Source: DASVDK01 sp036381125 [NCBI: Thermodesulfobacteriota bacterium] | GTDB taxonomy: Bacteria > DASVDK01 | Assembly: GCA_036381125.1 (NCBI GenBank) | Contig: DASVDK010000302.1 | Coordinates: forward strand, 1-23,029 | DNA: 23,029 nucleotides | Direction: 5' to 3' | Position numbers and translations under genes: made by a program | In this document: positions 1-23,029 of the stretch, one piece after another | Position numbering within the stretch: the stretch's first letter is position 1 | How the letters are laid out: every line of letters starts with the position of its first letter | Notes under the pieces: model-generated | Databases searched by the model: none | The model's input: only the letters and a program-made list of their open reading frames with translations | What the model was told of the DNA's origin: nothing

Positions 1-1818
1 GGCGGCGCAGAGCGCGGCGCCGATGGCGCCGGCCTCGCCCGAGTAGGGGTGCACGACGATCTCGGCGTCGGGCACCTTGCTCGTGATGAAGTCGACCTGG
101 GCCTTCACCACGGCGAGGTTCCGGTGGGTCCCCCCCTGCAGGACGAACTTCCGGCCGGCGGCGCGCAGGTTCTGGAGCTGGCCCGCGTAGACCCACACGT
201 TGAGGGGGAGGACGGCCGCGAGCGACGCCATGATCTCGTCGGCCGACCAGCCCTTCCGCTGCTGGTTCACGATGTCGGACTGGAGGAAGACGCCGCAGCC
301 CATCGTGAGGGTCGGCATGGCGCGCGCCCGGAAGGCCCGGTCGGCGTACCGGTCGAGGGGGACGCTGTAGCGCTCGGCGACCCCCTGCAGGAAGGCGCCG
401 TTGCCCGAGGAGCACTGGGAGTTCAGGCGGAAGTCGGCGACGGTCCCCTGCCTGAGGATCATGATCTTCACGTCGCAGCCGCCGACGTCGCAGATCACGT
501 CGGCGTCGGGGAAGAAGTGGAGCGCCGCGGTCGCGTGGGCGACGGTCTCGACGATCGCCAGGTCCGCCCCGAGGATGTCGGTGAGGAGGTCCTTGCCGTA
601 CCCCGTGAGGGCGAGACCGCCGATGTCGTGGAAGCCGGCCTCGCGGATCTGCCGGAAGAGCGCCTTGGCGTCCTCGATCGGGTTGCCCTTCGACGGCGCG
701 TAGCAGCTCGACAGCAGCTCCCGGTCGGGCGAGAGGACCACCGCCTTCGCCGTCGTGCTGCCGAAGTCGCAGCCGACGAGCACGCCGGTCCGCCGCCCGG
801 CGGCGGGCGCGGCGCGCGGCGCCGGGATCGCCCGCGCGAGGCTCCCGTACCGTCCGAGGAACCGTGTCAGCTCGTCCTCGTCCGTGGCGAGCCCCCTCGC
901 GCCGTCCTTCGCCTTCTGCGCGTGCTGCCCCTCCTCGATCCACCACCGGAGCCGTTCGGTCCCCTGGTAGACCCCGACGCCGTCCGCCTCCTGCCGGCCG
1001 ATCTCGACGCACCCGAGGCAGGCGTAGTAGAGGGCGTCGGGCGGCACGTGGACGAGCGACGCGGGATCCACCCCGTCTGGCAGGGGGACGCGGCGCTGCG
1101 CCCAGAGCGCCGCGAGGTGGTGCCGCCAGGCCTCCTGGAGCCCGGCGAAGAAGAGGTTCGGCCCGCCGAGGAGCAGCACCTCCGGCATGGGGGTGTTGCC
1201 CTTGGTCAGGGTCGCGAGGTTCTGGTAGACCACGGCCTCGAACAGGCTCGCGATGATCTCCTCGACCGGCACGCCTCCCTTGACGAGCGTGTTCGCGTCG
1301 GCCTCGGCGAAGATGCCGCACTTCGAGCTGATCTTGTGGAGGGAGAGGCCCGCGTAGCCCATCCGCGCGAGCCGCTCGGGCGCGATCTGCAGCTTGCGGG
1401 CGGTCTTCTCGATGAAGGTCCCGGTCCCGCCGCTGCAGGCCGACTGCATGTAGACCTGCTTCGACTTCCCGGCGCCGGTGGCGGTGAAGAAGACGGTCTT
1501 CATGTCCTCCCCGCCGATCTCCGAGACGAACCGCACGCCGGGGTGCAGGCGCTCGACCGAGGCCGCGACGGCGACGACCTCCTGCACGAACTTCCCCCCG
1601 ACGAGCGGCGCGATGAACCCGGCGCCGGAGCCGGTGAAGAAGACGCGGTCGCGCCCGGGCGCGAGCGCGCAGTCGGCCTCCATCCGGCCGAGGAAGTCGA
1701 GGACCGTCTCGGCCTGCCGGGTGTCGTGCCGCCGGTAGTCCTGCCAGAGGACGCGGCCGTCCTCGACGACCGCCGCCTTGACCGTCGTCGAGCCGACGTC
1801 GACGCCGACGATCTTCAT
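1..1818 (-). CDS. BadF/BadG/BcrA/BcrD-type activase of 2-hydroxyacyl-CoA dehydratase, two tandem ATPase domains (C-terminus off window)
   Basis: ATP-dependent Fe-S protein of the acetate-kinase/Hsp70/actin superfamily. Such activases pass one electron to a 2-hydroxyacyl-CoA dehydratase or a benzoyl-CoA-reductase-like partner. The minus frame is open for 606 codons from ATG 1818 to the window edge, so the end is missing. Domain 1 begins with the phosphate loop GVDVGSTTVK (residues 5-14). It carries the cluster cysteines C128 (SACSGG) and C167 (SSKCGIF). A second copy starts near residue 345 (GCDFGSTTAK), with C469 (SQCSSG) and C508 (MGCGVF). So both halves keep their own cysteine pair, as expected for two fused activase units. 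The start ATG overlaps the upstream stop in ATGA, which implies translational coupling with the dehydratase-like gene. The physiological substrate cannot be read from the sequence. The family call is firm. Confidence 0.9.
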   Translation of the reverse strand, partial: MKIVGVDVGSTTVKAAVVEDGRVLWQDYRRHDTRQAETVLDFLGRMEADCALAPGRDRVFFTGSGAGFIAPLVGGKFVQEVVAVAASVERLHPGVRFVSEIGGEDMKTVFFTATGAGKSKQVYMQSACSGGTGTFIEKTARKLQIAPERLARMGYAGLSLHKISSKCGIFAEADANTLVKGGVPVEEIIASLFEAVVYQNLATLTKGNTPMPEVLLLGGPNLFFAGLQEAWRHHLAALWAQRRVPLPDGVDPASLVHVPPDALYYACLGCVEIGRQEADGVGVYQGTERLRWWIEEGQHAQKAKDGARGLATDEDELTRFLGRYGSLARAIPAPRAAPAAGRRTGVLVGCDFGSTTAKAVVLSPDRELLSSCYAPSKGNPIEDAKALFRQIREAGFHDIGGLALTGYGKDLLTDILGADLAIVETVAHATAALHFFPDADVICDVGGCDVKIMILRQGTVADFRLNSQCSSGNGAFLQGVAERYSVPLDRYADRAFRARAMPTLTMGCGVFLQSDIVNQQRKGWSADEIMASLAAVLPLNVWVYAGQLQNLRAAGRKFVLQGGTHRNLAVVKAQVDFITSKVPDAEIVVHPYSGEAGAIGAALCAA

Positions 1819-3335
1819 CGGCCCGCCCCCCGGCTCGCGAGGTGGAGCACCAGGTTCGCGGCCGTCCCGGCGACGCCGTCGCGCGGCACGCGGTAGGTCG
1901 CCCGGCGCATCTCGGGGTGCGCGGCAAGGTAGGCCCGCGCCGCCTCCGGCGTGAGGCCCGTCCGGGCGAGCGTCTCCTCGTACTCGCGCTGCGCCCGCTT
2001 CCTGGCCTCGGCGAGCACCATCTGGCAGCGCGAGAGGACGTGCACCTCGGCATCGCCCTTGATCTCGAGCGGCGCGTAGAGCAGGTCCGGGTGCTTGCCG
2101 AGGACGCCGGCCATCGCGCCCACGCTCATGGTGTTGGGCATGCAGGCGTAGGGCGACAGCTCGCACGTCATGTGGGCCTTCTTGTGGTGGTAGGCCCAGA
2201 GCGCCTTGCCGACGAGCATGTCGCCTTCGCCGCCGGAGAGCCGGCTGTGGAAGTACGGCGCGGCGAGCCGTTGCAGCTCGTACTGGTCCGGCAGCTCGTG
2301 CGGCAGCCCGCCCAGCGCGCGGCGCAGCCGGTCGTACGCGCCGCGCAGCAGCCGCTGCAGCGCCCGCCCGGCCGCGGCCTTGAGGCGCGCGTACCGGTCG
2401 ATGCCGATCCGGTCCTCGAAACGCTGCACGCGCGCGCGGATGATGTAGTCGAGCCAGACCGCGATCGCCGCCGGGTGGACCTCGGCCCCCTCGGCCTCGA
2501 GCCAGCGGTGGATGTTGTGGTTGGGCTCCCCCTCGACGGTCTGCAGGTAGAACTCGCCGGTGATCTTGACGGCCGGCTTCACCCGGAGCCGGTCCACCTC
2601 GATGGCGTCGAAGCGCCGGCGGACCTCGCGCAGCGCCGACACGAAGTAGTCGGTGGTGAGGTGCCACGCGACCGCGCCCCACTTCTTGCCGCGGTGCGGC
2701 CGCTTGCGGAAGACCTCGCAGAGGAGGTCGACGCTCTCGGCGACCGCCCGGTCGGTCCGGCCTGCCTCGACCTCGTAGGGGCGCGTCTGGTACTCCAGGT
2801 CCTGGAGCACGTCGGTGCAGAGGATCGCCCAGAGGGCGCCCATGGTGAAGGGCATGTTGATGTCGAGGCCGCCCCCGGTGGCCTCGGCGCCCTGGTCGAG
2901 GTCGTCCTGGGCCATCAGGAAGAGCCGGAACGCCTCGAGGCCGGTGTTGCGCAGCGCCAGCTCGTAGCTCTGGTGGTATTGACCGAAGCGGCAGGCGCCG
3001 CAGGCGCCGGCGGTCAGGTAGACGTAGTCCCGGACCACCGAGTCGCTCCCGATGCGTGCGGCCTCCGCCCGGAGGAAGTTCACGAGGTTTCCGGTCGTGA
3101 AGCTCGTCGGGCAGCACTGTCCGATGTCGGCCGCCTCACGTCCCGTGAGGAGGTCGTCCTTGTTCGCCGCGGGCAGGGCCCGCGCCCGGTACCCCAGGTT
3201 CTCGAAGACCGCTTCGAGCACCCGTTCGGCTCGCCAGTGTAGACCGCCGAAGAGCACGATCACGCGGTCTCGCTCGTCTCTCGTGAACGGACGCGGGCGG
3301 TACGCGCGATACGGCGGAGCGCTCGCAACTGCCAT
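1815..3335 (-). CDS. 2-hydroxyacyl-CoA dehydratase-like protein (COG3581-type), activase partner
   Basis: 506 aa. Known relatives are the dehydratase-like modules that often sit with, or are fused to, activases. The cysteine signatures of that group are present: GQCCPTSF with C74-C75, GACGACRFGQY with C112 and C115, and CELSPYACMPNTM with C391 and C398. These probably ligate a [4Fe-4S] cluster. The start is ATG 3335, preceded by GGGAGAG about 5 nt upstream. The TGA stop overlaps the activase ATG by 4 nt, so the two are almost certainly made together. In many genomes the equivalent module is part of one very long polypeptide; here it is a separate gene placed upstream of the activase. The substrate is unknown. 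A role in reductive or radical chemistry on a CoA thioester is inferred from the family. Confidence 0.82.
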   Translation of the reverse strand: MAVASAPPYRAYRPRPFTRDERDRVIVLFGGLHWRAERVLEAVFENLGYRARALPAANKDDLLTGREAADIGQCCPTSFTTGNLVNFLRAEAARIGSDSVVRDYVYLTAGACGACRFGQYHQSYELALRNTGLEAFRLFLMAQDDLDQGAEATGGGLDINMPFTMGALWAILCTDVLQDLEYQTRPYEVEAGRTDRAVAESVDLLCEVFRKRPHRGKKWGAVAWHLTTDYFVSALREVRRRFDAIEVDRLRVKPAVKITGEFYLQTVEGEPNHNIHRWLEAEGAEVHPAAIAVWLDYIIRARVQRFEDRIGIDRYARLKAAAGRALQRLLRGAYDRLRRALGGLPHELPDQYELQRLAAPYFHSRLSGGEGDMLVGKALWAYHHKKAHMTCELSPYACMPNTMSVGAMAGVLGKHPDLLYAPLEIKGDAEVHVLSRCQMVLAEARKRAQREYEETLARTGLTPEAARAYLAAHPEMRRATYRVPRDGVAGTAANLVLHLASRGAGR

Positions 3336-8918: not shown

Positions 8919-9791
8919 TCAGCCGTCATCGTCACCGCCGTCGGGTGACGGTTCCGGCGTCGGAGCGAGCGTGGGCGTCGGCTCCGGGCCGGGCGTCGGT
9001 GTCACGACCGACGTGGGGGTGGGCGTCGGCGCGGGCGCAGCGGTCGGTGTCGGCTCCGGCGTCGGGGTGGGCGTCGGCTCCGGCGTGGGCGTGGGCGTCG
9101 GTTCCGGCGTCGGGGTAGGGGTCGGCGTCGGAGTCGGTTCCGGAGTTGGCGTGGGTGTCGGCGTGGGTGTCGGCTCAGGCGTGGGCGTCGGCGTCGGCCG
9201 AGGCGTCGGCGTCGGGCTCGGCGTGGGTGTCGGCGTCGGCACCGGCTCGGGGGGCGGCGGAGGCGCCGCGCAGGCGTCGACGCCGAAGAGGCCGCGCTCG
9301 GCCGCCGCCGCCTCCGCCTGCCCGGCCTCGAGACGGTCGTCGGCCGCCGGACCGCCGCAGGCCCCGACCGTTCCGCGGAACTGCGCGAGGCCGGCGCGGA
9401 GCAGCTCGAGGTTCACGAAGCTCTCCCCGGGCACCACCACGTACGCGGCCGCCCCGCCCCGGGGCACCGGCTGCCCCGGGGGAGGCGTCGGGCAGACGGT
9501 CACCTCGACGGTGCGGCCCCGCACGAGGCGGTCCAGGTAGGCCCGCGACTCCACGCCGCAGGCCTCGCCCTCCTCGGGCGCGTCGACCCCGAGGAGCGCC
9601 ACCTCGCGTCCGTCCTCGAGCCGGAGCGTCTCGCCGTCGGTCACCTGCGAGACGCGCGCGCGCTCGCCGCCGGACGGGTGGAACGGTCCCTCGGGCTCGC
9701 CGCTCGAGCCGCCGGGCAGCGAGTCCCCGCTTCCACATGCGGCGACGAGGCCCGCGAGGGCGACCAGGAGCGTTCGAACGCGGCGGCCCAT
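8919..9791 (-). CDS. Lipoprotein with degenerate staphylococcal-nuclease (SNase) domain and Pro-Thr tail
   Basis: 290 aa from ATG 9791, chosen because it places a lipoprotein signal at the N-terminus: MGRRVR, a hydrophobic run, and LVAAC with Cys19. A longer frame to 9905 would hide it. Residues 45-175 follow the SNase pattern: [26 protein letters not shown], and a C-terminal AAERGLFG. The Asp and Glu of the DAPE motif are kept (Asp70, Glu73). The positions of the two catalytic arginines of the family are Ala65 and Gly113, so nuclease activity is doubtful. Extra cysteines (78, 100, 145, 174) suggest disulfides outside the cytoplasm. Residues 178-290 are an almost pure PT/PTPEPT repeat ending in an acidic tip, like a cell-wall or envelope spacer. 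No strong ribosome-binding site is visible. Confidence 0.75.
8945..9262. repeat. Low-complexity coding repeat (Pro-Thr / Pro-Glu-Pro-Thr)
   Basis: A 320-bp run of short units such as gtcggcgtgggc and gtcggctccggc on the plus strand encodes the PT/PEPT tail of the lipoprotein on the minus strand. Unit length is 6-18 bp and copies are imperfect. It is prone to slippage and to assembly collapse, so the copy number may not be exact. Confidence 0.85.
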
Positions 9792-9888
9792 GACCCGTGC
9801 GCGTGCTCGGGCCGTGCCGCGCTCGGGGGAGAGCCGGGCCGCGAGGAGCGCCGGGCGAGGCGGCCGCTTCCGCGCTAATGTCAGGGTC

Positions 9889-10815
9889 ATGAAGATCGCC
9901 ATCATGGGAAGCGGCGGCGTCGGGGGCTACGTCGGCGCACGCCTTGCGAAGGCGGGTCACGATGTGCGCTTCATCGCGCGCGGCGCACACCTCCGGGCGA
10001 TGCGCGAGGAGGGGCTCGGGGTGGAGAGCCCGAGGGGCCGGATCCACCTCCACCCGGTCGAGGTCACCGACGACCCGGCCGCCGTCGGCCCGGTCGACCT
10101 GGTCGTCTTCGCGGTCAAGCTGTGGGGCGCCGAGGCGGCGGCGCGCCAGATCCTGCCGATGCTCGGGCCGGACACGGCCGTCGTCACCTTCCAGAACGGG
10201 GTCGAGGCGAACGACATGCTCGGCGCGGTCGTCGGCCGGGAGCGCCTCGTGGGCGGGGTCTGCTACATCGCCACCGTCATCGAGCGGCCGGGCGTGATCC
10301 GCCACACGGGGCAGATGGCGCGCTTCGTCATGGGGGAGTTCGGCGGCGGCCGCACGAAGCGGATCGAGGCGATCGAGGCGGCCTTCCGCCGGGCCGACGG
10401 CCTCGACTTCGAGGTGAGCGCCGACATCGAGGCGGCCATCTGGCAGAAGTTCGTCTTCCTCACGGCTCTCGCGGCGCTGACCGCCATGACACGCATGCCG
10501 ATCGGGCCGATCCGCGAGGACCCGGATGCGCGGGCGTTCTTCCTCGACCTGATGCGCGAGGTGGTGGCGGTGGGCCGGGCCAGGGGGGTGCGACTCGACC
10601 CGGCCTTTGCCGACGAGCGGCTCGCCTTCGCCGACACGCTGCCGGCCGAGATGAAGGCCTCCATGGCGCACGACCTCGAGCGCGGCAACCCGCTCGAGGT
10701 CCACTGGCTCTCCGGGGCGGTCGTCCGCCTCGGCGCCGAAGCCGGCGTGCCGACTCCGGCCAACCGCGCGGCCTACGTCGCGCTGAAGCTCCACGCCGAC
10801 GGCCGGCCGCGATGA
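9889..10815 (+). CDS. Ketopantoate reductase (ApbA/PanE) family oxidoreductase
   Basis: 308 aa. The start ATG 9889 is chosen because the Rossmann motif follows at once: [12 protein letters not shown] (residues 2-13), an NADPH-binding GxGxxG. Downstream are the family's VFAVK (about 65-69), QNGVEAND (about 103-110), a catalytic-lysine helix IWQKFVF, and the C-terminal [11 protein letters not shown] with the substrate-binding Glu. The usual Asn a few residues after the Lys is not obvious. The family reduces 2-oxo acids such as ketopantoate with NADPH. Here the gene opens a catabolic-looking operon and overlaps the racemase-like gene by ATGA. A 2-oxo/2-hydroxy acid other than ketopantoate is therefore plausible, and true PanE function is not assumed. 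Confidence 0.87.
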
Positions 10816-12789: not shown

Positions 12790-13950
12790 TCACCGGCCGA
12801 GGACGGCACGCACCCGTGCGAGCCCGCGTGACAGCTCCTCCAGGGACCGCGTGAAGGTGAGCCGCAGGTGCCCCTCGCCACGGGCCCCGAACGCTGCGCC
12901 CGGCACGACGGCGACGTGGGCCTCCTCCAGCAGGCGATCGGCCAGCGCGGCGGACGACTCGCCCAGGGCGGAACAGTCGGGGAAGGCATAGAAGGCGCCG
13001 TCCGGCGGCACGCATCGCACGCCGCGAATCCGGTTCAGCTCGCCCACCACCAGGTCACGCTTGCGGAGGTACGAATCCCGGAGCGCGTCGAAGAAGGCCG
13101 CCGGGGCGTCGAGCGCCGCGAGGGCGGCCAGTTGCCCCTGCGACGGCGCACAGGTCGTCGTGTGCTGCTGCACGAGCGCCGCCCGCTCGACGACGGCGCG
13201 AGGCCCCGCGAGCACGCCGACGCGCAGCCCGGGCATCACGTAGCTCTTCGAGAAGCTCTGCACGGTCAACGTCCGGCCGCGCCCCTCTTCCAACGCCGCG
13301 AGGCTCACGTGGCGGGCGCCGGGGTAGACGATCTTCGCGAAGCTCTCGTCGACGAGCACCCACGCGTCCGCGCGCGCCGCCGCCCGCCCGACGGCGCGCA
13401 GCGCCGCCTCGTCGAAGACCGCGCCCGTCGGGTTGTGCGGCGTGTTGAGGAGGACCATCCGGGTGGCCGGCCCGATCCGGCTCGCCAGGGCCTCCGGGTC
13501 GAGCGCCGATCGGCCGTCCGGCAGCACGCGCATCGGCACGGGGACGGGCGTTGCGCCGGCCAGCCGTACGGCCGGGTCGTAGCTGACCCAGGATGGATCG
13601 AGGAGCAGCACCTCGTCACCAGGCCCGACGCAGGCCATCAGCGCGAGATAGACGGCATACTTGGCACCGACGGTGACGAGGATCTCGCCGTCCGGGTCCG
13701 CGGTGATGCCGTACTCGCGGGCGAGCGCCCGGGCGAGCGCCGCGCGCAGTTCCGAGATCCCGGCCGCGCCCGTGAGGAAGTTGAAGCCGTCGTCGGCGGC
13801 GCGATGCAGCGCCTCGCGCAGGAAGGCGGGCGCGGCGTCCTCGGGGCGGCTTCCGGCGAAGTCGGCCACCGCGATGCCGGCCGCACGAAGCGCGGCGGCC
13901 CGCTCGGCGACGCGCAGGGTGCCCGAGGGTTGCAGCCAGGAGCGGCTCAC
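12790..13950 (-). CDS. PLP-dependent aminotransferase, class I/II (aspartate aminotransferase fold)
   Basis: 386 aa. The start is GTG 13950, overlapping the dehydrogenase TGA as GTGA. Markers of fold-type I aminotransferases appear in order: GAKYAVYLAL (about 95-104), LNTPHNPTGAVFD (168-180), VDESF (200-204) with the pyridine-nitrogen Asp201, and SFSKSYVMPGLRVG with the PLP lysine Lys235. Near the C-terminus is HLRLTFTRS, where Arg would bind the substrate carboxylate. The length fits the family. It is the last gene of the selenoprotein operon. It would transfer an amino group to or from the operon's substrate or product, but the specific amino acid cannot be predicted. Confidence 0.92.
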   Translation of the reverse strand: MSRSWLQPSGTLRVAERAAALRAAGIAVADFAGSRPEDAAPAFLREALHRAADDGFNFLTGAAGISELRAALARALAREYGITADPDGEILVTVGAKYAVYLALMACVGPGDEVLLLDPSWVSYDPAVRLAGATPVPVPMRVLPDGRSALDPEALASRIGPATRMVLLNTPHNPTGAVFDEAALRAVGRAAARADAWVLVDESFAKIVYPGARHVSLAALEEGRGRTLTVQSFSKSYVMPGLRVGVLAGPRAVVERAALVQQHTTTCAPSQGQLAALAALDAPAAFFDALRDSYLRKRDLVVGELNRIRGVRCVPPDGAFYAFPDCSALGESSAALADRLLEEAHVAVVPGAAFGARGEGHLRLTFTRSLEELSRGLARVRAVLGR

Positions 13951-15011
13951 GGCGTCATCGAGACCTTGATCGCGTGCTCGAGCCGCTTCGACGCGATCTC
14001 GAGCGCCCGCTCGAATTCGCGCAGCGGGATGTCGTGCGTGACGATCTCGTCGAGCCGGATGGCGCCGCGCCGCACGTACTCGATGGCCAGCGGGAAGGCG
14101 TCGGCCTCCGCCCCGCCGGACATCGTCCGCCCGATGAAGGTCAGCTCCTTCTGGTTGCAGACCGCTCCGAACTCGATCTTCGGTGCGACCGTGCTCGCGT
14201 AGGCGGCGCCCACGACGAACCGCCCCCGCTTGCGCAGCAGCCGGGATCCCACCTCGATCGCCTCGGTCTGTCCGTGATCCACGACCAGGTCGACCCCGAG
14301 CCCATCGGTCAGCGCCCGCACCTCGGCGACGACGTCCGTGCTCCGGAGGTTGAGCACGACGTCCGCGCCGAGGCGCTTGCCGACTTCCAGACGGTGGTCG
14401 TCGTCCTCGACGTAGATCGTGAGTGCGGCCCCCCGGAGCCGGCAGACCTGGACCATGATGAGCCCCAGGAAGCCCCCGCCGAGGACCACGACCGTCTCGC
14501 CGAGGCGCAGCCCTCCCCGGTCGACCGTGTAGATGCCGCACGCGGTCGACTCGAGGGCGATGGCGGCGCGCCAGGAGACCTCGGGCGGCAGTCGGTGCAC
14601 GATCGCCCCCGCCGGGAAGATCATGTACTCCGACCAGCAGCCGTCGATCTCGAGCCCGAAGTGCGCCTGCCGGTCGCAGAGGTGATACCAGCCGCGCCGG
14701 CAGTACCAGCAGAGGCCGCACGAGACGACCTGCTCGGCGACGACGCGGTCGCCCACCGCGATGCGGTGCCGCTCGCCCGCGCCGGCGCCCAGGGCCGCGA
14801 CGGTCCCGGCAAACTCGTGCCCGGCGACGCCGGGCCGGTTCCTGCCGATCGGCCACTCGCCGCGCGAGATGACCGGGTCGTTGATGCCCACGCCGACCTT
14901 GGCCACCTTGACGAGGACCTCCCCGGGGCCCGGCGCCGGCACCGCGACCTCCTGGTACCGGAGGTCGCGCGGTCCGTGCACGAGCACGGCGCGCATGCTC
15001 TGCGGAATCAT
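13947..15011 (-). CDS. Medium-chain zinc-type alcohol dehydrogenase lacking the first catalytic-zinc cysteine
   Basis: 354 aa from ATG 15011, which overlaps the previous TGA (ATGA). A second Met at codon 6 is a possible start. The structural-zinc cysteines are intact: C98, C101, C104 and C112 (CGLCWYCRRGWYHLC). His65-Glu66 (GHEFAG) and Glu154 (LESTACG) correspond to catalytic-zinc residues. The segment that normally reads GICGTD or GICGSD is GVGIND here, so the first zinc-binding Cys is Gly42. The NAD(P)-binding GGGFLG motif follows (about 179-184). The enzyme should oxidise or reduce an alcohol/carbonyl intermediate of the pathway, perhaps with altered zinc use. Both neighbours overlap it by 4 nt, so co-production is likely. 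Confidence 0.9.
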   Translation of the reverse strand: MIPQSMRAVLVHGPRDLRYQEVAVPAPGPGEVLVKVAKVGVGINDPVISRGEWPIGRNRPGVAGHEFAGTVAALGAGAGERHRIAVGDRVVAEQVVSCGLCWYCRRGWYHLCDRQAHFGLEIDGCWSEYMIFPAGAIVHRLPPEVSWRAAIALESTACGIYTVDRGGLRLGETVVVLGGGFLGLIMVQVCRLRGAALTIYVEDDDHRLEVGKRLGADVVLNLRSTDVVAEVRALTDGLGVDLVVDHGQTEAIEVGSRLLRKRGRFVVGAAYASTVAPKIEFGAVCNQKELTFIGRTMSGGAEADAFPLAIEYVRRGAIRLDEIVTHDIPLREFERALEIASKRLEHAIKVSMTP

Positions 15012-16063
15012 AGGCCCTCGATCCGCCGGCTGGCGGCGTACGTGTTGCCGAACGTCGTGATGAGCATCGTGTGTTTGCCCGCCCCGCCCGTGACCAGGAA
15101 CATGATGGCCTCGGCGGAGTCGGCCACGGGGATCGCGCCGGTGTCGCCGTGGCGCTCGAGCCAGGCCGCGCGCAGCAGGCGGATCCGCCTGGCGTTCTCC
15201 GGCGAGAAGCGCTCCCACGGCACCCGGGCCCGCTCGTAGAGGAACCGCTTCGCGTCGGCTTTGGACCAGCCGTCGCGCGCGATGAGGTCGGCATGCTCGG
15301 GGCTGAAGACGAGGAGCGGCTCGCCGCCCCGGAGCGCGTTGTTCGAGCCTGGCGTGATCATGGCGGACGCGATGCTGTGGAGGACCCCTTCGGCGGAGGT
15401 ACTGCTCGCGTCGTTGATGTTCATCGGCGCGTCGGCCCCGACCACCGTGACGACGCTCTCCTCCGGCCGGAAGCCACGCTCCACGTGAAGCGGCTCCCAG
15501 GGGCTCTCGGCCTCGTTCTCCGCGACGCAGTAGCTGTACTTCCCCGCGTGGCCGTGCGTCGCCCGGTCGTTCTTGCCCGGGTCGGCGCCGCCGATGTTGA
15601 GCAGCACGAAGCGCACCGCGCGTCCCACCGTGGCGTTGGCGCGCGTTCCCTGCCCGAAGCAGTTCTCGCGGCAGTTGAAGCCGAGCCGCGTCACGACCGG
15701 CCCGTTCAGGATGGCGAGCGGGGCGACGGCGTTCGTGGTGGACTGCACGGAGTTGAGGTTGAAGCGCGGCTCGAGGATGGCCCGCACGACGGCCACCACC
15801 ACCGGGAGGTACTCCGGCCTGCAGCCGGCCATCACGGCGTTCACGGCGATCCGCTCGACCGTCGCCTCGCCGTTGAGGTGCGGGATCACGCCGATGACCT
15901 CGGACGGGTCGCCGGCGTAGCCGGCGAGCATCCGGCGGACCCGCTCCGGCGTGGGCGGGACGATGGGCAGGCCGTCGGTCCAGCCCTGCTGGTAGAAGTG
16001 CTCGGTGACGGCCTCGAGGTCGTCGGGAAGCTCGAGGGTCGGCGAGGCGAGGTCGACCGACAT
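15008..16063 (-). CDS. Conserved protein of unknown function, partner of the UGSC selenoprotein
   Basis: 351 aa, start ATG 16063 sharing one base with the selenoprotein TGA stop (TGATG). I recognise no characterised domain. Conserved-looking stretches are FYQQGWTDGLPIVPPT (residues 23-38), IPHLNGEATVERIAVNAVMAGCRPEYLPVV in two parts around 60-89, FNCRENCFGQG with Cys131 and Cys135, YSYCVAENE with Cys179, and MITPGSNNA. There is no signal peptide and no transmembrane helix. The tight coupling to the UGSC gene suggests the two proteins form one enzyme. The CxxxC pair could exchange electrons or thiols with the selenocysteine, though this is inference. I see nucleotide-binding glycine motifs only weakly. 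Confidence 0.7.
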   Translation of the reverse strand: MSVDLASPTLELPDDLEAVTEHFYQQGWTDGLPIVPPTPERVRRMLAGYAGDPSEVIGVIPHLNGEATVERIAVNAVMAGCRPEYLPVVVAVVRAILEPRFNLNSVQSTTNAVAPLAILNGPVVTRLGFNCRENCFGQGTRANATVGRAVRFVLLNIGGADPGKNDRATHGHAGKYSYCVAENEAESPWEPLHVERGFRPEESVVTVVGADAPMNINDASSTSAEGVLHSIASAMITPGSNNALRGGEPLLVFSPEHADLIARDGWSKADAKRFLYERARVPWERFSPENARRIRLLRAAWLERHGDTGAIPVADSAEAIMFLVTGGAGKHTMLITTFGNTYAASRRIEGL

Positions 16064-16617
16064 CAGGCGTCCTTCCAGATCGGGGCGGACGTGAGGGCCG
16101 CGACGATCTGCGGCACCGTGGCGGTCGCGATGGCCGCCATCTCGTCCGCGCGCCGACCCGTCAGCGGGTGCGGGATGGTGAGGATCGGCAGGCCGATCGC
16201 GTTCATCGCGCGCGCCTTCTCGACGGCGAACGGGAGGAAGCGGTCGGTGCAGACGGTCACCGTCGGGATGCCCAATCGTTCGAGTGCGATCGAGTCGTGG
16301 ATACTCCACGGCGTGCACGACCCTCAGTCGGGGACGGCGTTGACGACGACGTCCGCCTCCTTCGCCATCTCGGCGATCAGCTCGGGTGCGGCAGGACTGC
16401 TCGAGTCCCGCTTGCGGCGGTGGATTCGCGCGGCGAGTCCCACGCGCCGGTCGAGCGCGTCGGCGACCGTGCGGAGATAGAGGTCCGAATTCGGCTTCGT
16501 GTTGTCGAGGAAGCCGACCCTGAGGCCGCCGAGCGCGGCCGGCCGCGGCACGAAAGCCACGGCCGGCGCGCGCTCCGCCTTCGGGGTCGCCCTCGGGATC
16601 AGGACGATCATCGGCAT
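16063..16617 (-). CDS. UGSC-family selenoprotein (in-frame TGA decoded as selenocysteine)
   Basis: 184 aa if TGA 16326-16324 is read as Sec98. Start ATG 16617, 15 nt after the tctC stop, has GGGAGGG just upstream; Met3 is an alternative. The N-terminal part has GFLDNTKPNSD (35-45), then ADVVVNAVPD, Sec98, GSC with Cys101, and TPWSIHDS. The same frame continues as a well-formed domain: LGIPTVTVCTDRF, ending in IWKDA and TGA 16065-16063. UGSC-containing proteins are a described bacterial selenoprotein family whose reaction is, to my knowledge, unsettled. U-x-x-C is a redox motif. A hairpin suited to SECIS function lies 18 nt downstream. Codon use and homology on both sides of the TGA argue against a pseudogene. 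The family name is recognised from the motif. Confidence 0.88.
16296..16310 (-). promoter_or_regulatory. Predicted bacterial SECIS hairpin of the UGSC gene
   Basis: On the minus strand CGTGG, AGTAT, CCACG form a perfect 5-bp stem and 5-nt loop. One further A-U pair would close it to a 3-nt loop. The loop begins 18 nt after the TGA, and its G is second in the loop, matching the rule known for bacterial SECIS elements. The structure was found by eye. Confidence 0.65.
16324..16326 (-). other. Selenocysteine codon TGA (Sec98 of UGSC protein)
   Basis: The TGA is in frame with conserved protein on both sides and is followed directly by Gly-Ser-Cys. A Cys homolog would read CGSC. Decoding needs SelB, SelA/SelC and SelD, none of which is in this window. 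Confidence 0.85.
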
Positions 16618-16631
16618 GAGCCCTCCCGCGA

Positions 16632-17594
16632 CTACTTCCTGACGCCCATCTCCTTGACCAGGTTCCCGTAGGCCGTGAACTCGGCCCTGATCGACTCGCC
16701 GAACGCCTGCGGCGGGAGGTAGCCCGGCAGGAGCTTCGCCTCCTCCGTGTACTTCACGAAGGAGGGCTCCTTGATCGCCTCCTGGACGAGGTCGTGGAGC
16801 TTCTTCACGACGTCGTCCGGCGTGTCCTTGGGCGCCACGAGGCCCCGCCAGATCTCGCCGACGACGTCCATCCCCATCTCCTTGAGCGTGGGGACGTCCG
16901 GGTAGGTCTTCAGGCGCTCGGGCGAGGCGATGCCGACGATGCGTACCTTGCCCGCCTCGACCTGCGGCGTGACTTCCGAGAGGCTCGTCATGAGGACGGC
17001 GACGTGCCCGCCGAGGAGCGCGGTCATCGCCTCGGCGCCGCCGTCGAAGGGCACGTAGGAGAACCTGAGATCGTTCTTCCGGAAGACCTCGTAGGTCAGG
17101 AGGCTGTCGAGGCTGCCGAGGAACGCCCCGCCGAACTTGACCTCCGAGGGCTGGGCCTTGGCCGCGCCGAGGACGTCCTCGAGCGTCTTCCACGGGGCGT
17201 CGGCCCGCACGAGGAACGCCTCCGGGTCGGTCTGGATGCGGATCACCGGCTTGAAGTCGGCCAGCGAGTAGCGCGAGCCGGCCACGTGCGGCGTGATGAC
17301 GCCGGAGGCGGTGCCGACGAGGAGCGTGTAGCCGTCGGCCGGCTGGCTGGAGACGTACTCCATCGCCGTGGCCCCGCCGCCGCCCGGCCGGTTGACCACC
17401 ACCACCGGCACCCTGGCGTGCTTGCTGAGCGGCTCGGCGAGCTGGCGCGCGAGGACGTCGCCGCCGCCCCCGACGCTCGACCAGGTGACGAGCCGGATGG
17501 GGGCGGACGGGAACTCCGCCGCCGCGGCCGGCGCGGCGAGCGCCGCGACGAGCGCGACGGCGAGCGACGTGAGGATTCTCCCGGGGCGTCGCAT
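16632..17594 (-). CDS. tctC: Tripartite tricarboxylate transporter substrate-binding protein
   Basis: 320 aa of the TctC/Bug family of periplasmic carboxylate-binding proteins. Start ATG 17594 has AGGAGG six nt upstream. An Ala-rich signal peptide ends near residue 26 (APAAAA-EF). The mature protein has the family's hallmarks: FPSAPIRLVTWSSVGGGGDVLAR (27-49), VVVNRPGGGG (64-73), YTLLVGT, YVPFDGGAEAMTALLGGHV (about 188-206), RIVGIASPERL, and DVPTLKEMGMDV. Bug proteins bind dicarboxylates, amino acids or aromatic acids, usually through main-chain and water contacts, so the ligand cannot be predicted. It immediately follows tctA and precedes the selenoprotein gene, which makes uptake of the pathway substrate its likely role. 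Confidence 0.95.
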   Translation of the reverse strand: MRRPGRILTSLAVALVAALAAPAAAAEFPSAPIRLVTWSSVGGGGDVLARQLAEPLSKHARVPVVVVNRPGGGGATAMEYVSSQPADGYTLLVGTASGVITPHVAGSRYSLADFKPVIRIQTDPEAFLVRADAPWKTLEDVLGAAKAQPSEVKFGGAFLGSLDSLLTYEVFRKNDLRFSYVPFDGGAEAMTALLGGHVAVLMTSLSEVTPQVEAGKVRIVGIASPERLKTYPDVPTLKEMGMDVVGEIWRGLVAPKDTPDDVVKKLHDLVQEAIKEPSFVKYTEEAKLLPGYLPPQAFGESIRAEFTAYGNLVKEMGVRK

Positions 17595-21160: not shown

Positions 21161-22144
21161 TCAGGCCCGGAAGAGCGACAGGGCGAATCGGGCATCGGGG
21201 TCGACCCACTGGGCCTCGCCCTCGAACCCCGCGGCCCGACCCAGCGCGACGAGCTCGTCCGGCTGATACTTGTACGAGCTTTCCGTCCAGATCGTCTCGC
21301 CCGGCTCGAACGCGAACGAGCCGCCGGCGCCGGGGACCGAGACCCGCTGTCGCTGCCGGCTCACGAGGTGCATCTCCACCCGCGAGTGGCTCGCGTTCCA
21401 GACGGCTCGATGCTCGAACGCGTCGAGCGCGAAGTCGCCGCCCAGCTCGGCGTTGATCCTGACCAGCAGGTTCTTGTTGAAGGCGGCCGTCAACCCGAGC
21501 GGGTCGTCGTAGGCGATCCGCAGCTCGGCCTCCGGCTTGACGAGATCGGCCCCGAGGAGCAAGCCGTCCCCGGGCCGGAGGCCCTCGCGGATCACGCGCA
21601 GCAGGGCGAGCGCGTCGGGCGGCTCGAAGTTGCCGACGTTCGAGCCGAGGAAGAGGACCAGGGTTCGGTCGCCGGCAGGACGAGACGGGACCTCGCGCAT
21701 CGCGCACGCGTACGTGGCTCTGTGAGGGACGACGGAGACGTCGTCGAAGCGCGCGAGCCGCTCGGCCGCCGCGGCGAGCGCGCCGGCCGACACGTCGACC
21801 AGGTGGACCTCCAGGGCACGACCTCGGCCCCTGTTGGCCTCGACCACGATGGCCGTCTTCTCTCCACTGCCGGGGCCGAGGTCGGCGAGCGTGTCGCAGT
21901 GACCGAGCCGGGCGAGGGCCGCCGGGACGTGTCGGGTCAGGAGCCGGGTCTCGGCCCGGGTGATGTGGTACCAGGGCAGGCAGCAGATCGCGTCGAACAG
22001 CCTGGAGCCGAGCGCGTCGTAGAGGTACCGGGACTGCAGGCGCTTCGGCCGCGACCCCAGGTCCCGTCGGACGTCGCGGCCGAACGCGTGACGCTCTTCG
22101 GGGGCGTCGCCGGCGTCGCCGGGTCGCGGCACCACGGCAGCCAC
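21161..22144 (-). CDS. egtD: L-histidine N-alpha-methyltransferase (ergothioneine synthesis)
   Basis: 327 aa, start GTG 22144, one base after the egtB stop. EgtD trimethylates histidine to hercynine with three SAM. Family features in order: SRYLYDALGSRLFDAI (about 38-53), the SAM loop DLGPGSGEKT (about 88-97), VHLVDVSAGAL, LVLFLGSNVGNF (family: LGSTIGNF), NKNLLVRINAELGGDF, WNASHSRVEMHL, and the C-terminal ESSYKY which binds the substrate. Length and order are typical of the family. With egtB upstream it forms a compact two-gene unit. The same enzyme would also supply hercynine for selenoneine where that pathway exists. Confidence 0.93.
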   Translation of the reverse strand: MAAVVPRPGDAGDAPEERHAFGRDVRRDLGSRPKRLQSRYLYDALGSRLFDAICCLPWYHITRAETRLLTRHVPAALARLGHCDTLADLGPGSGEKTAIVVEANRGRGRALEVHLVDVSAGALAAAAERLARFDDVSVVPHRATYACAMREVPSRPAGDRTLVLFLGSNVGNFEPPDALALLRVIREGLRPGDGLLLGADLVKPEAELRIAYDDPLGLTAAFNKNLLVRINAELGGDFALDAFEHRAVWNASHSRVEMHLVSRQRQRVSVPGAGGSFAFEPGETIWTESSYKYQPDELVALGRAAGFEGEAQWVDPDARFALSLFRA

Positions 22145-22145
22145 G

Positions 22146-23029
22146 TTACGTCCGCCCTCCGCCGGACGCCGTCGCCCCGGACGCGACGCATCGGAAGGTC
22201 GCGTAGACGAAGGGATAGCGGGGCCGGAACCAGTTCCGGAAGGTCCGGCGCACCAGCGGCCCGGCCGTTGCCGGCGAGGCGCCCTTGAGGACGTAGTGCT
22301 CGCCGTCGAAGAAGTCGGCCGAGTACTCGGGGTAGGCCCACATGGGCCGAAAGCCCGGGAAGCCCTCGAAGGGCGTGCTCGTCCACTCCCAGCCGTTGCC
22401 CACGAGGTCGTGCACGCCCCAGGCGCTTCGCCCCGCGGGGAACGACCCCACCGGCACCGGGTCCCAGTGGCGGAAGTCGAAGTTGCCCCGGGCGGCGTCG
22501 GCCGGCGCGTCGCCCCACGGATGCGGCCGCTCCCCGCCCGACGGCGTCCCGTACGCGGCCCGGTGGAACTCGGCCTCGGTCGCTAGCCGCCGGCCCTGCC
22601 ACCGCGCGTATGCCGTGGCCTCCGCGTGGCTGACGTACACCGGCCAGTGCGGCGGGAGCGGGACGGGCTCGAACAGGCCGCGCCAGTACCACCGGTCGTC
22701 GCGTCGCTCCCAGAACGGGGGATGCCGGTCCGGCTTCCCCTCGAGCCAGCGCCAGGCCTCGGCGTCCCACCACCGTGCGTCCCGGTAACCCTCCGCCTCG
22801 ACGAAGGCGAGATACTCCGCGTTCGTGACGTTGTGCGCGTCGATCTCGAACTCGGCGACCTCGGTCCGGTGCGCGGGGAACTCGTTGTCCCACCCGAAGG
22901 CCGTCCGTCCGGGCTCGGCTCCGAGCGTGGCGGCGCCCGCGGGGATGCGGACCGGTCCGGCCGGGGGCCGCTCGCCGCCGACGACCGGGTCGGCGCCGGG
23001 CGGTCGTCGCTTCTGCTCGTAGGGGAGGC
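22146..23029 (-). CDS. egtB: EgtB-type sulfoxide synthase, C-terminal FGE-sulfatase domain (N-terminus off window)
   Basis: 294 codons are visible, open to the window edge; the N-terminal DinB-like domain with the iron-binding histidines lies outside. The visible part is a formylglycine-generating-enzyme/sulfatase-modifying-factor domain: VRIPAGAATLGAE, FGWDNEFPAH, IDAHNVTNAEYLAFVE, WPVYVSHAEATAYARWQGRRLATEAE (in two parts), HDLVGNGWEWTSTPF, ending TFRNWFRPRYPFVYATFRCV. EgtB joins hercynine with gamma-glutamylcysteine or cysteine using O2 and iron. It directly precedes egtD. A SenA-type selenoneine synthase has the same architecture and cannot be excluded from this half. The stop TAA is followed one base later by the egtD GTG. 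Confidence 0.87.
   Translation of the reverse strand, partial: LPYEQKRRPPGADPVVGGERPPAGPVRIPAGAATLGAEPGRTAFGWDNEFPAHRTEVAEFEIDAHNVTNAEYLAFVEAEGYRDARWWDAEAWRWLEGKPDRHPPFWERRDDRWYWRGLFEPVPLPPHWPVYVSHAEATAYARWQGRRLATEAEFHRAAYGTPSGGERPHPWGDAPADAARGNFDFRHWDPVPVGSFPAGRSAWGVHDLVGNGWEWTSTPFEGFPGFRPMWAYPEYSADFFDGEHYVLKGASPATAGPLVRRTFRNWFRPRYPFVYATFRCVASGATASGGGRT

What the first reader, a model, noticed from the sequence alone, without database searches (positions are those of the whole stretch)
16063..16617. UGSC selenoprotein embedded in a transporter/dehydrogenase/aminotransferase operon
The minus frame contains TGA directly before Gly-Ser-Cys, with protein of the same family on both sides. An 18-nt-distant perfect hairpin has the G of its loop in the required position. 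The UGSC family is known as a selenoprotein family, but as far as I know its reaction is not established. Here it is locked between tctC and a 351-aa unknown protein, with overlapping or near-overlapping frames. This gives a concrete pathway context.
Basis: partly seen in the sequence, partly recalled or inferred. Interest (0 to 1): 0.9.

Follow-up and report, generated by a model that had tools for sequence, protein, structure and literature searches.

The report
Two-part selenium enzyme in catabolic operon
A bacterium of unknown identity carries a selenium-containing protein of a known but unexplained family, and comparison with other genomes shows that it nearly always comes with one unnamed partner protein, so the two are probably one enzyme, perhaps for breaking down imported compounds.

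Summary
Minus strand 16617-16063 reads as one 184-aa protein across a TGA (codon 98) in the motif UGSC and passes the cut-offs of the known UGSC family. A 6-bp hairpin with loop GUA starts 13 nt after the UGA; outside one genome such hairpins far exceed synonymous shuffles.

What is new lies beside it. The 351-aa 'unknown' (here PT) is a near-obligate partner: of 151 distinct UGSC domains fetched, 143 have PT on the same strand within 1.5 kb, 45 frames fused. In 95 genomes of one phylum, presence agrees in 94. UGSC is a distant relative of the selenocysteine domain of glycine/proline reductases; PT is not GrdE-like and matches no solved fold clearly.

One Chloroflexi MAG has 150 scored UGSC matches; the 93 printed all carry an in-frame TGA. 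A review gives 63 genes as the largest bacterial selenoproteome.

Best reading: a two-subunit selenoenzyme acting on an imported carboxylate by GrdB-like chemistry. The pairing is well supported, the chemistry inferred. No genome is held for the window.

The parts
16063..16617 (-). UGSC selenoprotein gene, 184 aa plus TGA stop; Sec98 in motif UGSC
   Evidence: NF041046 147 bits, PF24696 171.8 bits
16324..16326 (-). in-frame TGA read as selenocysteine (codon 98)
   Evidence: Sec motif in 148 of 151 distinct homologous domains
16296..16310 (-). bSECIS-like hairpin CGUGGA-GUA-UCCACG, 13 nt after the UGA
15008..16063 (-). PT: 351-aa partner protein, overlapping the UGSC stop (TGATG)
   Evidence: no match in Pfam or NCBIfam at E 0.01; beside UGSC in 143 of 151 distinct cases; AlphaFold pLDDT 96.5
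16632..17594 (-). TctC, solute receptor of a tripartite tricarboxylate transporter
   Evidence: PF03401 193 bits
17597..19081 (-). TctA, large membrane subunit
   Evidence: PF01970 463 bits
19093..19488 (-). TctB, small membrane subunit
   Evidence: PF07331 54.7 bits
19557..20258 (-). GntR/FCD transcriptional regulator, likely regulator of the operon (inference)
   Evidence: PF00392 and PF07729
13947..15011 (-). zinc-dependent alcohol/threonine dehydrogenase family protein, ATGA overlap with the PT stop
   Evidence: PF08240, PF00107; start read
12790..13968 (-). PLP aminotransferase class I/II, start uncertain
   Evidence: PF00155 232 bits

Best explanation
UGSC and PT are the two subunits of one selenoenzyme. 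UGSC carries the catalytic selenocysteine on a Rossmann/flavodoxin-like domain that is a distant relative of the Sec domain of GrdB/PrdB (glycine and D-proline reductases). PT is the second, probably substrate-shaping subunit; some loci have more PT than UGSC genes. In the window the substrate would be a carboxylate (amino acid or hydroxy acid) imported by TctABC; the selenolate of Sec98 attacks an activated carbon, a leaving group departs reductively or by transfer, and Cys101 with a cellular thiol resets the enzyme; the dehydrogenase and aminotransferase process the product. Shown by computation: Sec decoding, pairing and fusion, distant kinship to GrdB/PrdB, operon. Inferred: nucleophilic or reductive chemistry, substrate class, roles of PT and of Cys101. 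Sub-claims: selenoprotein 0.97; one two-subunit enzyme 0.9; GrdB-like chemistry about 0.45.
For: Pairing: 143 of 151 distinct UGSC domains have PT on the same strand within 1.5 kb; 45 frames of G012 scored as fused UGSC-PT (one cut by the stretch end); both gene orders occur. Co-occurrence in 95 genomes of one phylum: UGSC in 72 (E 1e-3), PT in 71 (E 1e-10), agreement in 94 by my reading of the two tables. Four tandem PT frames on the strand of a single UGSC in L207, about 2.7 kb from it; two PT near one another in L128, L134, L168, L170, L174, L176. A natural fusion folds with pLDDT 92.8, pTM 0.93. Kinship: hhalign of UGSC against 13 PF07355-type proteins, Prob 92, E 6.5e-7, Sec sites in register; 11 of 40 UGSC members match TIGR01917, best E 1.7e-6. 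Catabolic setting: TctABC, GntR, dehydrogenase, aminotransferase here; in 19 stretches of G012 chosen for richness, 49 of 65 UGSC units have an SBP_bac_5 gene within 2.5 kb, 49 of 49 on the same strand; neighbours elsewhere include CoA transferases, enoyl-CoA hydratases, 2-hydroxyacid dehydrogenases, amidohydrolases, LigB.
Against: The window UGSC does not itself match PF07355; the GrdB link is distant, and 29 of 40 UGSC members give no TIGR01917 match at E 0.01. GrdE/PrdA-type genes (PF09338) have no match in G006, G011, G012, G129 and G146, all with UGSC, and PT is unrelated to GrdE (Prob 0.1) and to GrdB (Prob 1.4), so the Schiff-base step known for GrdE/PrdA (recalled) cannot be assumed. 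Neighbours vary strongly between lineages; transporter pairing is marked in G012 but weak in 20 stretches of the Rokubacteria phylum (Peripla_BP_6 in 4 of 138 genes). Seven UGSC domains with full flanks lack PT within 1.5 kb. G012's hairpins do not exceed the control by my rule. No substrate was identified.
Confidence: 0.5

Rival explanations
1. UGSC is a general thiol/selenol redox protein (antioxidant, disulfide reductase), as is supposed for many such families, and PT is its client or reductase.
For: UxxC motif; [quoted passage not shown] the 2026 review names it among families whose functions are largely uncharacterised (passage read).
Against: The model's UGSC domain matches Rossmann and flavodoxin-like chains (BdcA Z 10.6); no thioredoxin is among the rows shown, though that excludes nothing. 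Many divergent paralogs, 49 of 65 with a solute-binding gene within 2.5 kb, fit substrate-specific catabolism better than redox housekeeping.
Confidence: 0.12
2. UGSC-PT is a non-redox enzyme: Sec as covalent nucleophile in a hydrolase, lyase or dehalogenase, regenerated without a reductant.
For: In 40 UGSC proteins the invariant columns are P8, D89, Sec/Cys98, G99, G116, F127; Cys101 is conserved in 90% or more but not in all, so an obligatory Sec-Cys couple is not certain. Neighbours are mixed hydrolases, CoA enzymes and dehydrogenases.
Against: UGxC in 62 of 65 G012 domains and UGTU in one point to a redox pair; kinship to GrdB/PrdB.
Confidence: 0.2
3. PT is the catalytic subunit (weakly like class I fumarase or cyclic amide hydrolases) and UGSC delivers electrons or selenium to it.
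For: Best, weak Foldseek rows for PT are a two-subunit fumarate hydratase (E 3.1e-3, prob 0.57) and cyclic amide hydrolases; PT has invariant R148 and E182 and a nearly invariant C81 in 62 sequences.
Against: VIA-align Z at most 5.6, rmsd 5 to 6 A for the fumarase rows; only one nearly invariant Cys, so no obvious iron-sulfur site.
Confidence: 0.15
4. The TGA is a real stop or a sequencing error: two short frames or a pseudogene.
For: No sel genes can be checked in the window's genome.
Against: Sec motif in 148 of 151 distinct homologs, hairpin at a fixed distance, family match on both sides, sel machinery in relatives.
Confidence: 0.02

Closest known systems
UGSC family (seleno)protein, NF041046 / PF24696
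   Same: Same family by curated score; UGSC motif; SECIS; mostly a Sec form (255 Sec and 21 Cys in GOS, PMC2398784, passages read)
   Different: Described there as one protein, likely Trx-like; here it appears as one subunit of a pair, with a Rossmann-like predicted fold and distant kinship to GrdB/PrdB
UGSC/Unknown_1 fusion of the 2008 GOS paper (PMC2398784; Figure S1A not seen)
   Same: A UGSC protein fused to an unknown conserved domain; Unknown_1 may well be PT
   Different: Reported as one of several domain fusions; here PT is the near-universal neighbour, separate or fused
Glycine/sarcosine/betaine reductase selenoprotein B (GrdB, GrdF, GrdH) and D-proline reductase PrdB, PF07355
   Same: Sec domain in register; Sec subunit plus a second subunit; carboxylate substrates (last two recalled for Grd/Prd, inferred here)
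   Different: No PF07355 match; partner is not GrdE/PrdA
Tripartite tricarboxylate transporter TctABC
   Same: All three subunits in the operon
   Different: Ordinary; only its linkage to UGSC-PT is of interest, and that linkage is not conserved in the loci scanned

Membership tests
UGSC family (NF041046, PF24696) | score above curated cut-off | tested here: met
   147 vs 125 bits; 171.8 vs 25 bits
UGSC family (NF041046, PF24696) | Sec (TGA) in U-G-x-C | tested here: met
Bacterial selenoprotein | SECIS hairpin just downstream of UGA with G at the start of the loop (rule recalled) | tested here: met
Bacterial selenoprotein | selA, selB, selC, selD in the same genome | not testable with these tools
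   no whole genome held; relatives: selB 12 of 12, tRNA-Sec 11 of 12, selA above cut-off in 8 of 10; selD not sought
GrdB/PrdB (PF07355) | match to PF07355 | tested here: not met
   only PF24696 reported for the window UGSC at E 0.01
GrdB/PrdB (PF07355) | homologous Sec domain by profile comparison | tested here: met
   hhalign Prob 92, E 6.5e-7, Sec in register
Glycine/proline reductase complex | pyruvoyl-type partner GrdE/PrdA (PF09338) | tested here: not met
   PT vs GrdE Prob 0.1; no PF09338 match in 5 of 11 genomes, all five with UGSC
Thioredoxin-fold selenoproteins | thioredoxin fold | tested here: inconclusive
   best rows Rossmann/flavodoxin-like, none of the rows shown a thioredoxin

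The most novel reading that the evidence does not exclude
UGSC-PT is a large, unrecognised superfamily of substrate-specific two-subunit selenoenzymes, a third branch beside glycine and proline reductase, used by uncultivated Chloroflexi, Rokubacteria-type and Nitrospinota-type bacteria to attack many different imported carboxylates; one Chloroflexi MAG would carry on the order of 100 to 190 of them, which would make it the largest selenoproteome known.
Probability: 0.4. Interest if true: 0.92.

Novelty: new variant of a known kind. Interest (0 to 1): 0.74.

Why it matters
UGSC has been on record as a major selenoprotein family of unknown function since at least 2008 (PMC2398784). A near-obligate partner, natural fusions, a link to GrdB/PrdB and catabolic operons turn 'unknown redox protein' into a testable two-subunit enzyme with a named partner and a candidate substrate class (Tct-type carboxylates). 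If the Chloroflexi count stands, selenium-dependent catabolism has been scaled up in one lineage beyond the 63 selenoprotein genes that a 2026 review gives as the upper bound (passage read).

Tried and rejected
Own genome: not held, so sel genes were sought only in relatives. The window's species was not identified: printed DNA matches in 95 genomes of the Rokubacteria phylum are 65 to 72% identical, strongest in PT. A single-sequence fold of the SECIS region gave no significance; the synonymous-shuffle test replaced it. By the hairpin rule (G in the first two loop bases) G012 does not exceed its control (site 30 of 62, 25.0 expected; 60 nt further on 28 of 62, 20.0 expected), though its mean z is -0.91 against 0.03. 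Inspection shows a strong hairpin with loop CUUGC at the same place, a post-hoc reading. For Nitrospinota-type loci the count is clear (15 of 16) but mean z is -0.45 against -0.36 in the control. The group labels are mine: L001 and L002 are titled only 'bacterium', and the mostly Rokubacteria-phylum group includes a few archaeal and Chloroflexi loci. The Sec-bearing archaeal locus L031 shows no such hairpin after its UGA.

PDB sequence searches gave no credible relative of UGSC, PT or the fusion. Foldseek/VIA for PT gave no clear fold: weak fumarase and amide-hydrolase rows were not taken as kinship; 'no clear match' does not mean a new fold. Thioredoxins were not among the rows shown for UGSC, which excludes nothing. 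PT as a GrdE or GrdB relative: rejected. A solute receptor as constant partner: held for the chosen G012 stretches only; in the Rokubacteria-phylum scan TctC is not among the 25 commonest of 167 families.

G012 doubts. Its tRNA-Sec was not found; the best hit is tRNA-Ser. I read this as MAG incompleteness because selA and selB are there and TGA also ends 62 of 201 called long genes with a visible stop. Strain mixing as the cause of the copies: within the 19 fetched stretches 0 of 64 UGSC and 0 of 66 PT domains are over 90% identical to another fetched copy, though 19 of 66 PT are over 80%. The stretches were chosen for richness, so rates from them are not genome-wide. score at most 150 candidates per genome, and an in-frame TGA there is not shown to be the Sec site. 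Of seven UGSC domains without PT within 1.5 kb, five are one ortholog group; only G001's was widened (four PT frames about 2.7 kb upstream, L207); L174's nearest PT is about 2.4 kb off; L049's wider stretch L208 has none. G019, the one discordant genome, was not examined.

Literature: searched 'UGSC' with 'selenoprotein', 'UGSC' alone, Methylomirabilota (28), Rokubacteria (93), SAR202 (94), Chloroflexi selenoproteome (23); in the listings and the passages read I saw nothing on a UGSC partner beyond the 2008 fusion. Subscription journals are mostly not held. Haft and Tolstoy 2025 (not held) and Deng 2026 were not read.

Full report
The observation. The minus strand from 16617 to 16063 reads as one protein of 184 residues across a TGA at codon 98. 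NF041046 (UGSC family) matches residues 31-176 at 147 bits against a cut-off of 125 and PF24696 at 171.8 bits, so family sequence lies on both sides of the TGA.

Is it more than chance? A plain fold of 62 nt is not unusual (z -0.19). I therefore tested 145 distinct UGSC sites against synonymous shuffles that keep the protein. Over all, 111 of 145 have a hairpin by a bSECIS-like rule of my own wording (recalled, not taken from a program) against 59.4 expected. By group: 65 of 66 (27.9 expected) in mostly Rokubacteria-phylum loci, 15 of 16 (7.2) in Nitrospinota-type loci, the window 1 of 1 (0.2), and 30 of 62 (25.0) in genome G012. The same rule applied 60 nt later gives 33 of 66 (34.1), 3 of 16 (5.9), 0 of 1 (0.1) and 28 of 62 (20.0). 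So the excess is clear outside G012 and absent in G012 by this rule. Outside G012, 19 nt lie between UGA and loop in 75 of 83 counted hairpins, and the loop is GUN in 75 of 83. In G012 the commonest loop is CUUGC (16 of 62), which my rule rejects, and the first hairpin loop lies 18 or 19 nt after the UGA in 48 of 62. Across all fetched UGSC loci 148 of 151 distinct domains have Sec in the motif, one (archaeal, L007) has Cys, two have neither.

Selenium machinery. The window's own genome is not held. In 12 relatives with UGSC, selB passes the cut-off in 12 of 12 and tRNA-Sec in 11 of 12. selA passes in 8 of 10 genomes tested; not in the Archaeoglobi genome G007, nor in G008.

The partner. The 351-aa frame beside UGSC has no Pfam or NCBIfam match. 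I call it PT. It was found beside UGSC in 36 of the first 42 loci (some are the same place fetched twice). Over all loci, 143 of 151 distinct UGSC domains have PT on the same strand within 1.5 kb, 7 with full flanks do not, 1 is truncated. Five of the seven are one ortholog group; in G001 its wider stretch L207 holds four PT frames in tandem upstream on the same strand, about 2.7 kb off. Starting from PT instead, 41 of 42 loci fetched hold a PT frame (the other, L132, was fetched for TctA): UGSC is beside PT in 40 of 41, one of them a fragment at the locus end with E 1e-3, and the 41st locus ends 21 bases past PT. In 95 genomes of the phylum of a Rokubacteria genome, UGSC occurs in 72 and PT in 71; the tables agree in 94, the exception being G019. 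Many of these genomes have more PT than UGSC matches (G099: 13 and 8), which fits one UGSC serving several PT but may also reflect the family model's limits. In G012 many pairs are one fused frame of about 510-590 aa; 45 frames were scored as fused. In the window the two genes overlap (TGATG), as do PT and the dehydrogenase (ATGA).

Structure. A natural fusion from G012 was predicted with pLDDT 92.8 and pTM 0.93. Its UGSC part resembles Rossmann and flavodoxin-like chains (best Z 10.6, rmsd 3.0, 136 aligned). The window's PT was predicted at pLDDT 96.5; it has no clear match among solved structures (Foldseek best E 3.1e-3 with prob 0.57; VIA Z at most 5.6). In 62 PT sequences the invariant residues are G80, G121, G147, R148, E182, G326, with C81 nearly invariant.

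Kinship. 11 of 40 UGSC proteins match the GrdB model TIGR01917 at E 0.01, best E 1.7e-6. A profile comparison with 13 PF07355-type selenoproteins from related genomes gives Prob 92, E 6.5e-7, with the Sec sites in register. PT is not related to GrdB (Prob 1.4) nor to GrdE (Prob 0.1). GrdE-type genes were found in 6 of 11 genomes; these six are the six with a full-length GrdB-type match, while G006, G011, G012, G129 and G146 have none.

The expansion. G012, the genome of L012 (titled Chloroflexi bacterium NC_groundwater_644), has 150 scored UGSC matches out of 193 candidates; by my count 93 are printed, and all 93 have an in-frame TGA, one of them two. PT gives 150 scored of 222 candidates there and 56 in G129, a genome of the same class. 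In that class 77 of 245 sampled genomes have a UGSC match. In 19 stretches of G012 chosen for richness, 63 of 65 UGSC domains have Sec, none is over 90% identical to another fetched copy, and 49 of 65 have an SBP_bac_5 solute-binding gene within 2.5 kb, all 49 on the same strand. SBP_bac_5 accounts for 43 of 116 neighbour genes scanned (116 of 152 called). The caveat is that tRNA-Sec was not found in G012. A 2026 review puts the largest bacterial selenoproteome at 63 genes (passage read).

Context in the window. The operon on the minus strand runs GntR, TctB, TctA, TctC, UGSC, PT, zinc dehydrogenase, aminotransferase. This looks like a regulated catabolic operon for an imported carboxylate (inference). 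Elsewhere the neighbours differ: 2-hydroxyacid dehydrogenases, CoA transferases and enoyl-CoA hydratases in G012, amidohydrolases, LigB, thiolases and luciferase-like monooxygenases in the Rokubacteria phylum. So PT is nearly constant and the rest is variable, as expected of an enzyme with many substrates.

Mechanism. GrdB and PrdB (established knowledge, recalled) use Sec as a nucleophile on a carboxylate substrate held by a second subunit. UGSC shares the Sec domain and also comes with a second subunit, but a different one. I therefore propose that Sec98 attacks the substrate held at the UGSC-PT interface, and Cys101 helps to reset it. Only the kinship and the pairing are shown; the chemistry is inferred. 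The codons for W-S-I/V-H-D after the motif form the SECIS stem, so part of that conservation may be RNA and not enzyme.

Verdict. The gene is a new member of a known family. The system, a GrdB-related Sec subunit with a new, near-obligate partner and a huge paralog expansion in one lineage, is a new variant of a known kind. The 2008 paper's Unknown_1 fusion may be the same partner; I could not see its figure.

Noticed in passing
L083-L101 (G012), L012: A Chloroflexi MAG with 150 scored UGSC and 150 scored PT matches, many near SBP_bac_5 genes; G129 of the same class has 56 PT matches and two tRNA-Sec matches over the cut-off.
   Followed up: partly
L207 (G001): Four PT frames in tandem upstream of a single UGSC gene on the same strand, suggesting one Sec subunit shared by several PT subunits.
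   Followed up: partly
L092 and L097 in G012: Two paralogs lack the Sec motif; possible inactive or differently acting copies.
   Followed up: no
L031, L007 (Archaeoglobi MAG): An archaeal genome with one Sec and one Cys UGSC, each with PT; the Sec one lacks the downstream hairpin, as expected if its SECIS lies in an untranslated region (recalled for archaea).
   Followed up: no
L109-L113, L116-L119, L121: Ten proteins that match only the C-terminal half of PF07355 and have an in-frame TGA in the motif UPxC; those of G006 and G012 are in genomes without a GrdE match.
   Followed up: partly
window 1815-3335 (-): 506-aa protein without Pfam match; by eye it resembles 2-hydroxyacyl-CoA dehydratase-type proteins (recalled, not tested).
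   Followed up: no
window 21161-23027 (-): Histidine-specific methyltransferase (PF10017) next to an FGE-sulfatase domain protein (PF03781), an EgtD/EgtB-like pair for ergothioneine (names recalled).
   Followed up: no
window 8919-9905 (-): Protein with an SNase domain (PF00565) and a long Thr-Pro repeat tail.
   Followed up: no
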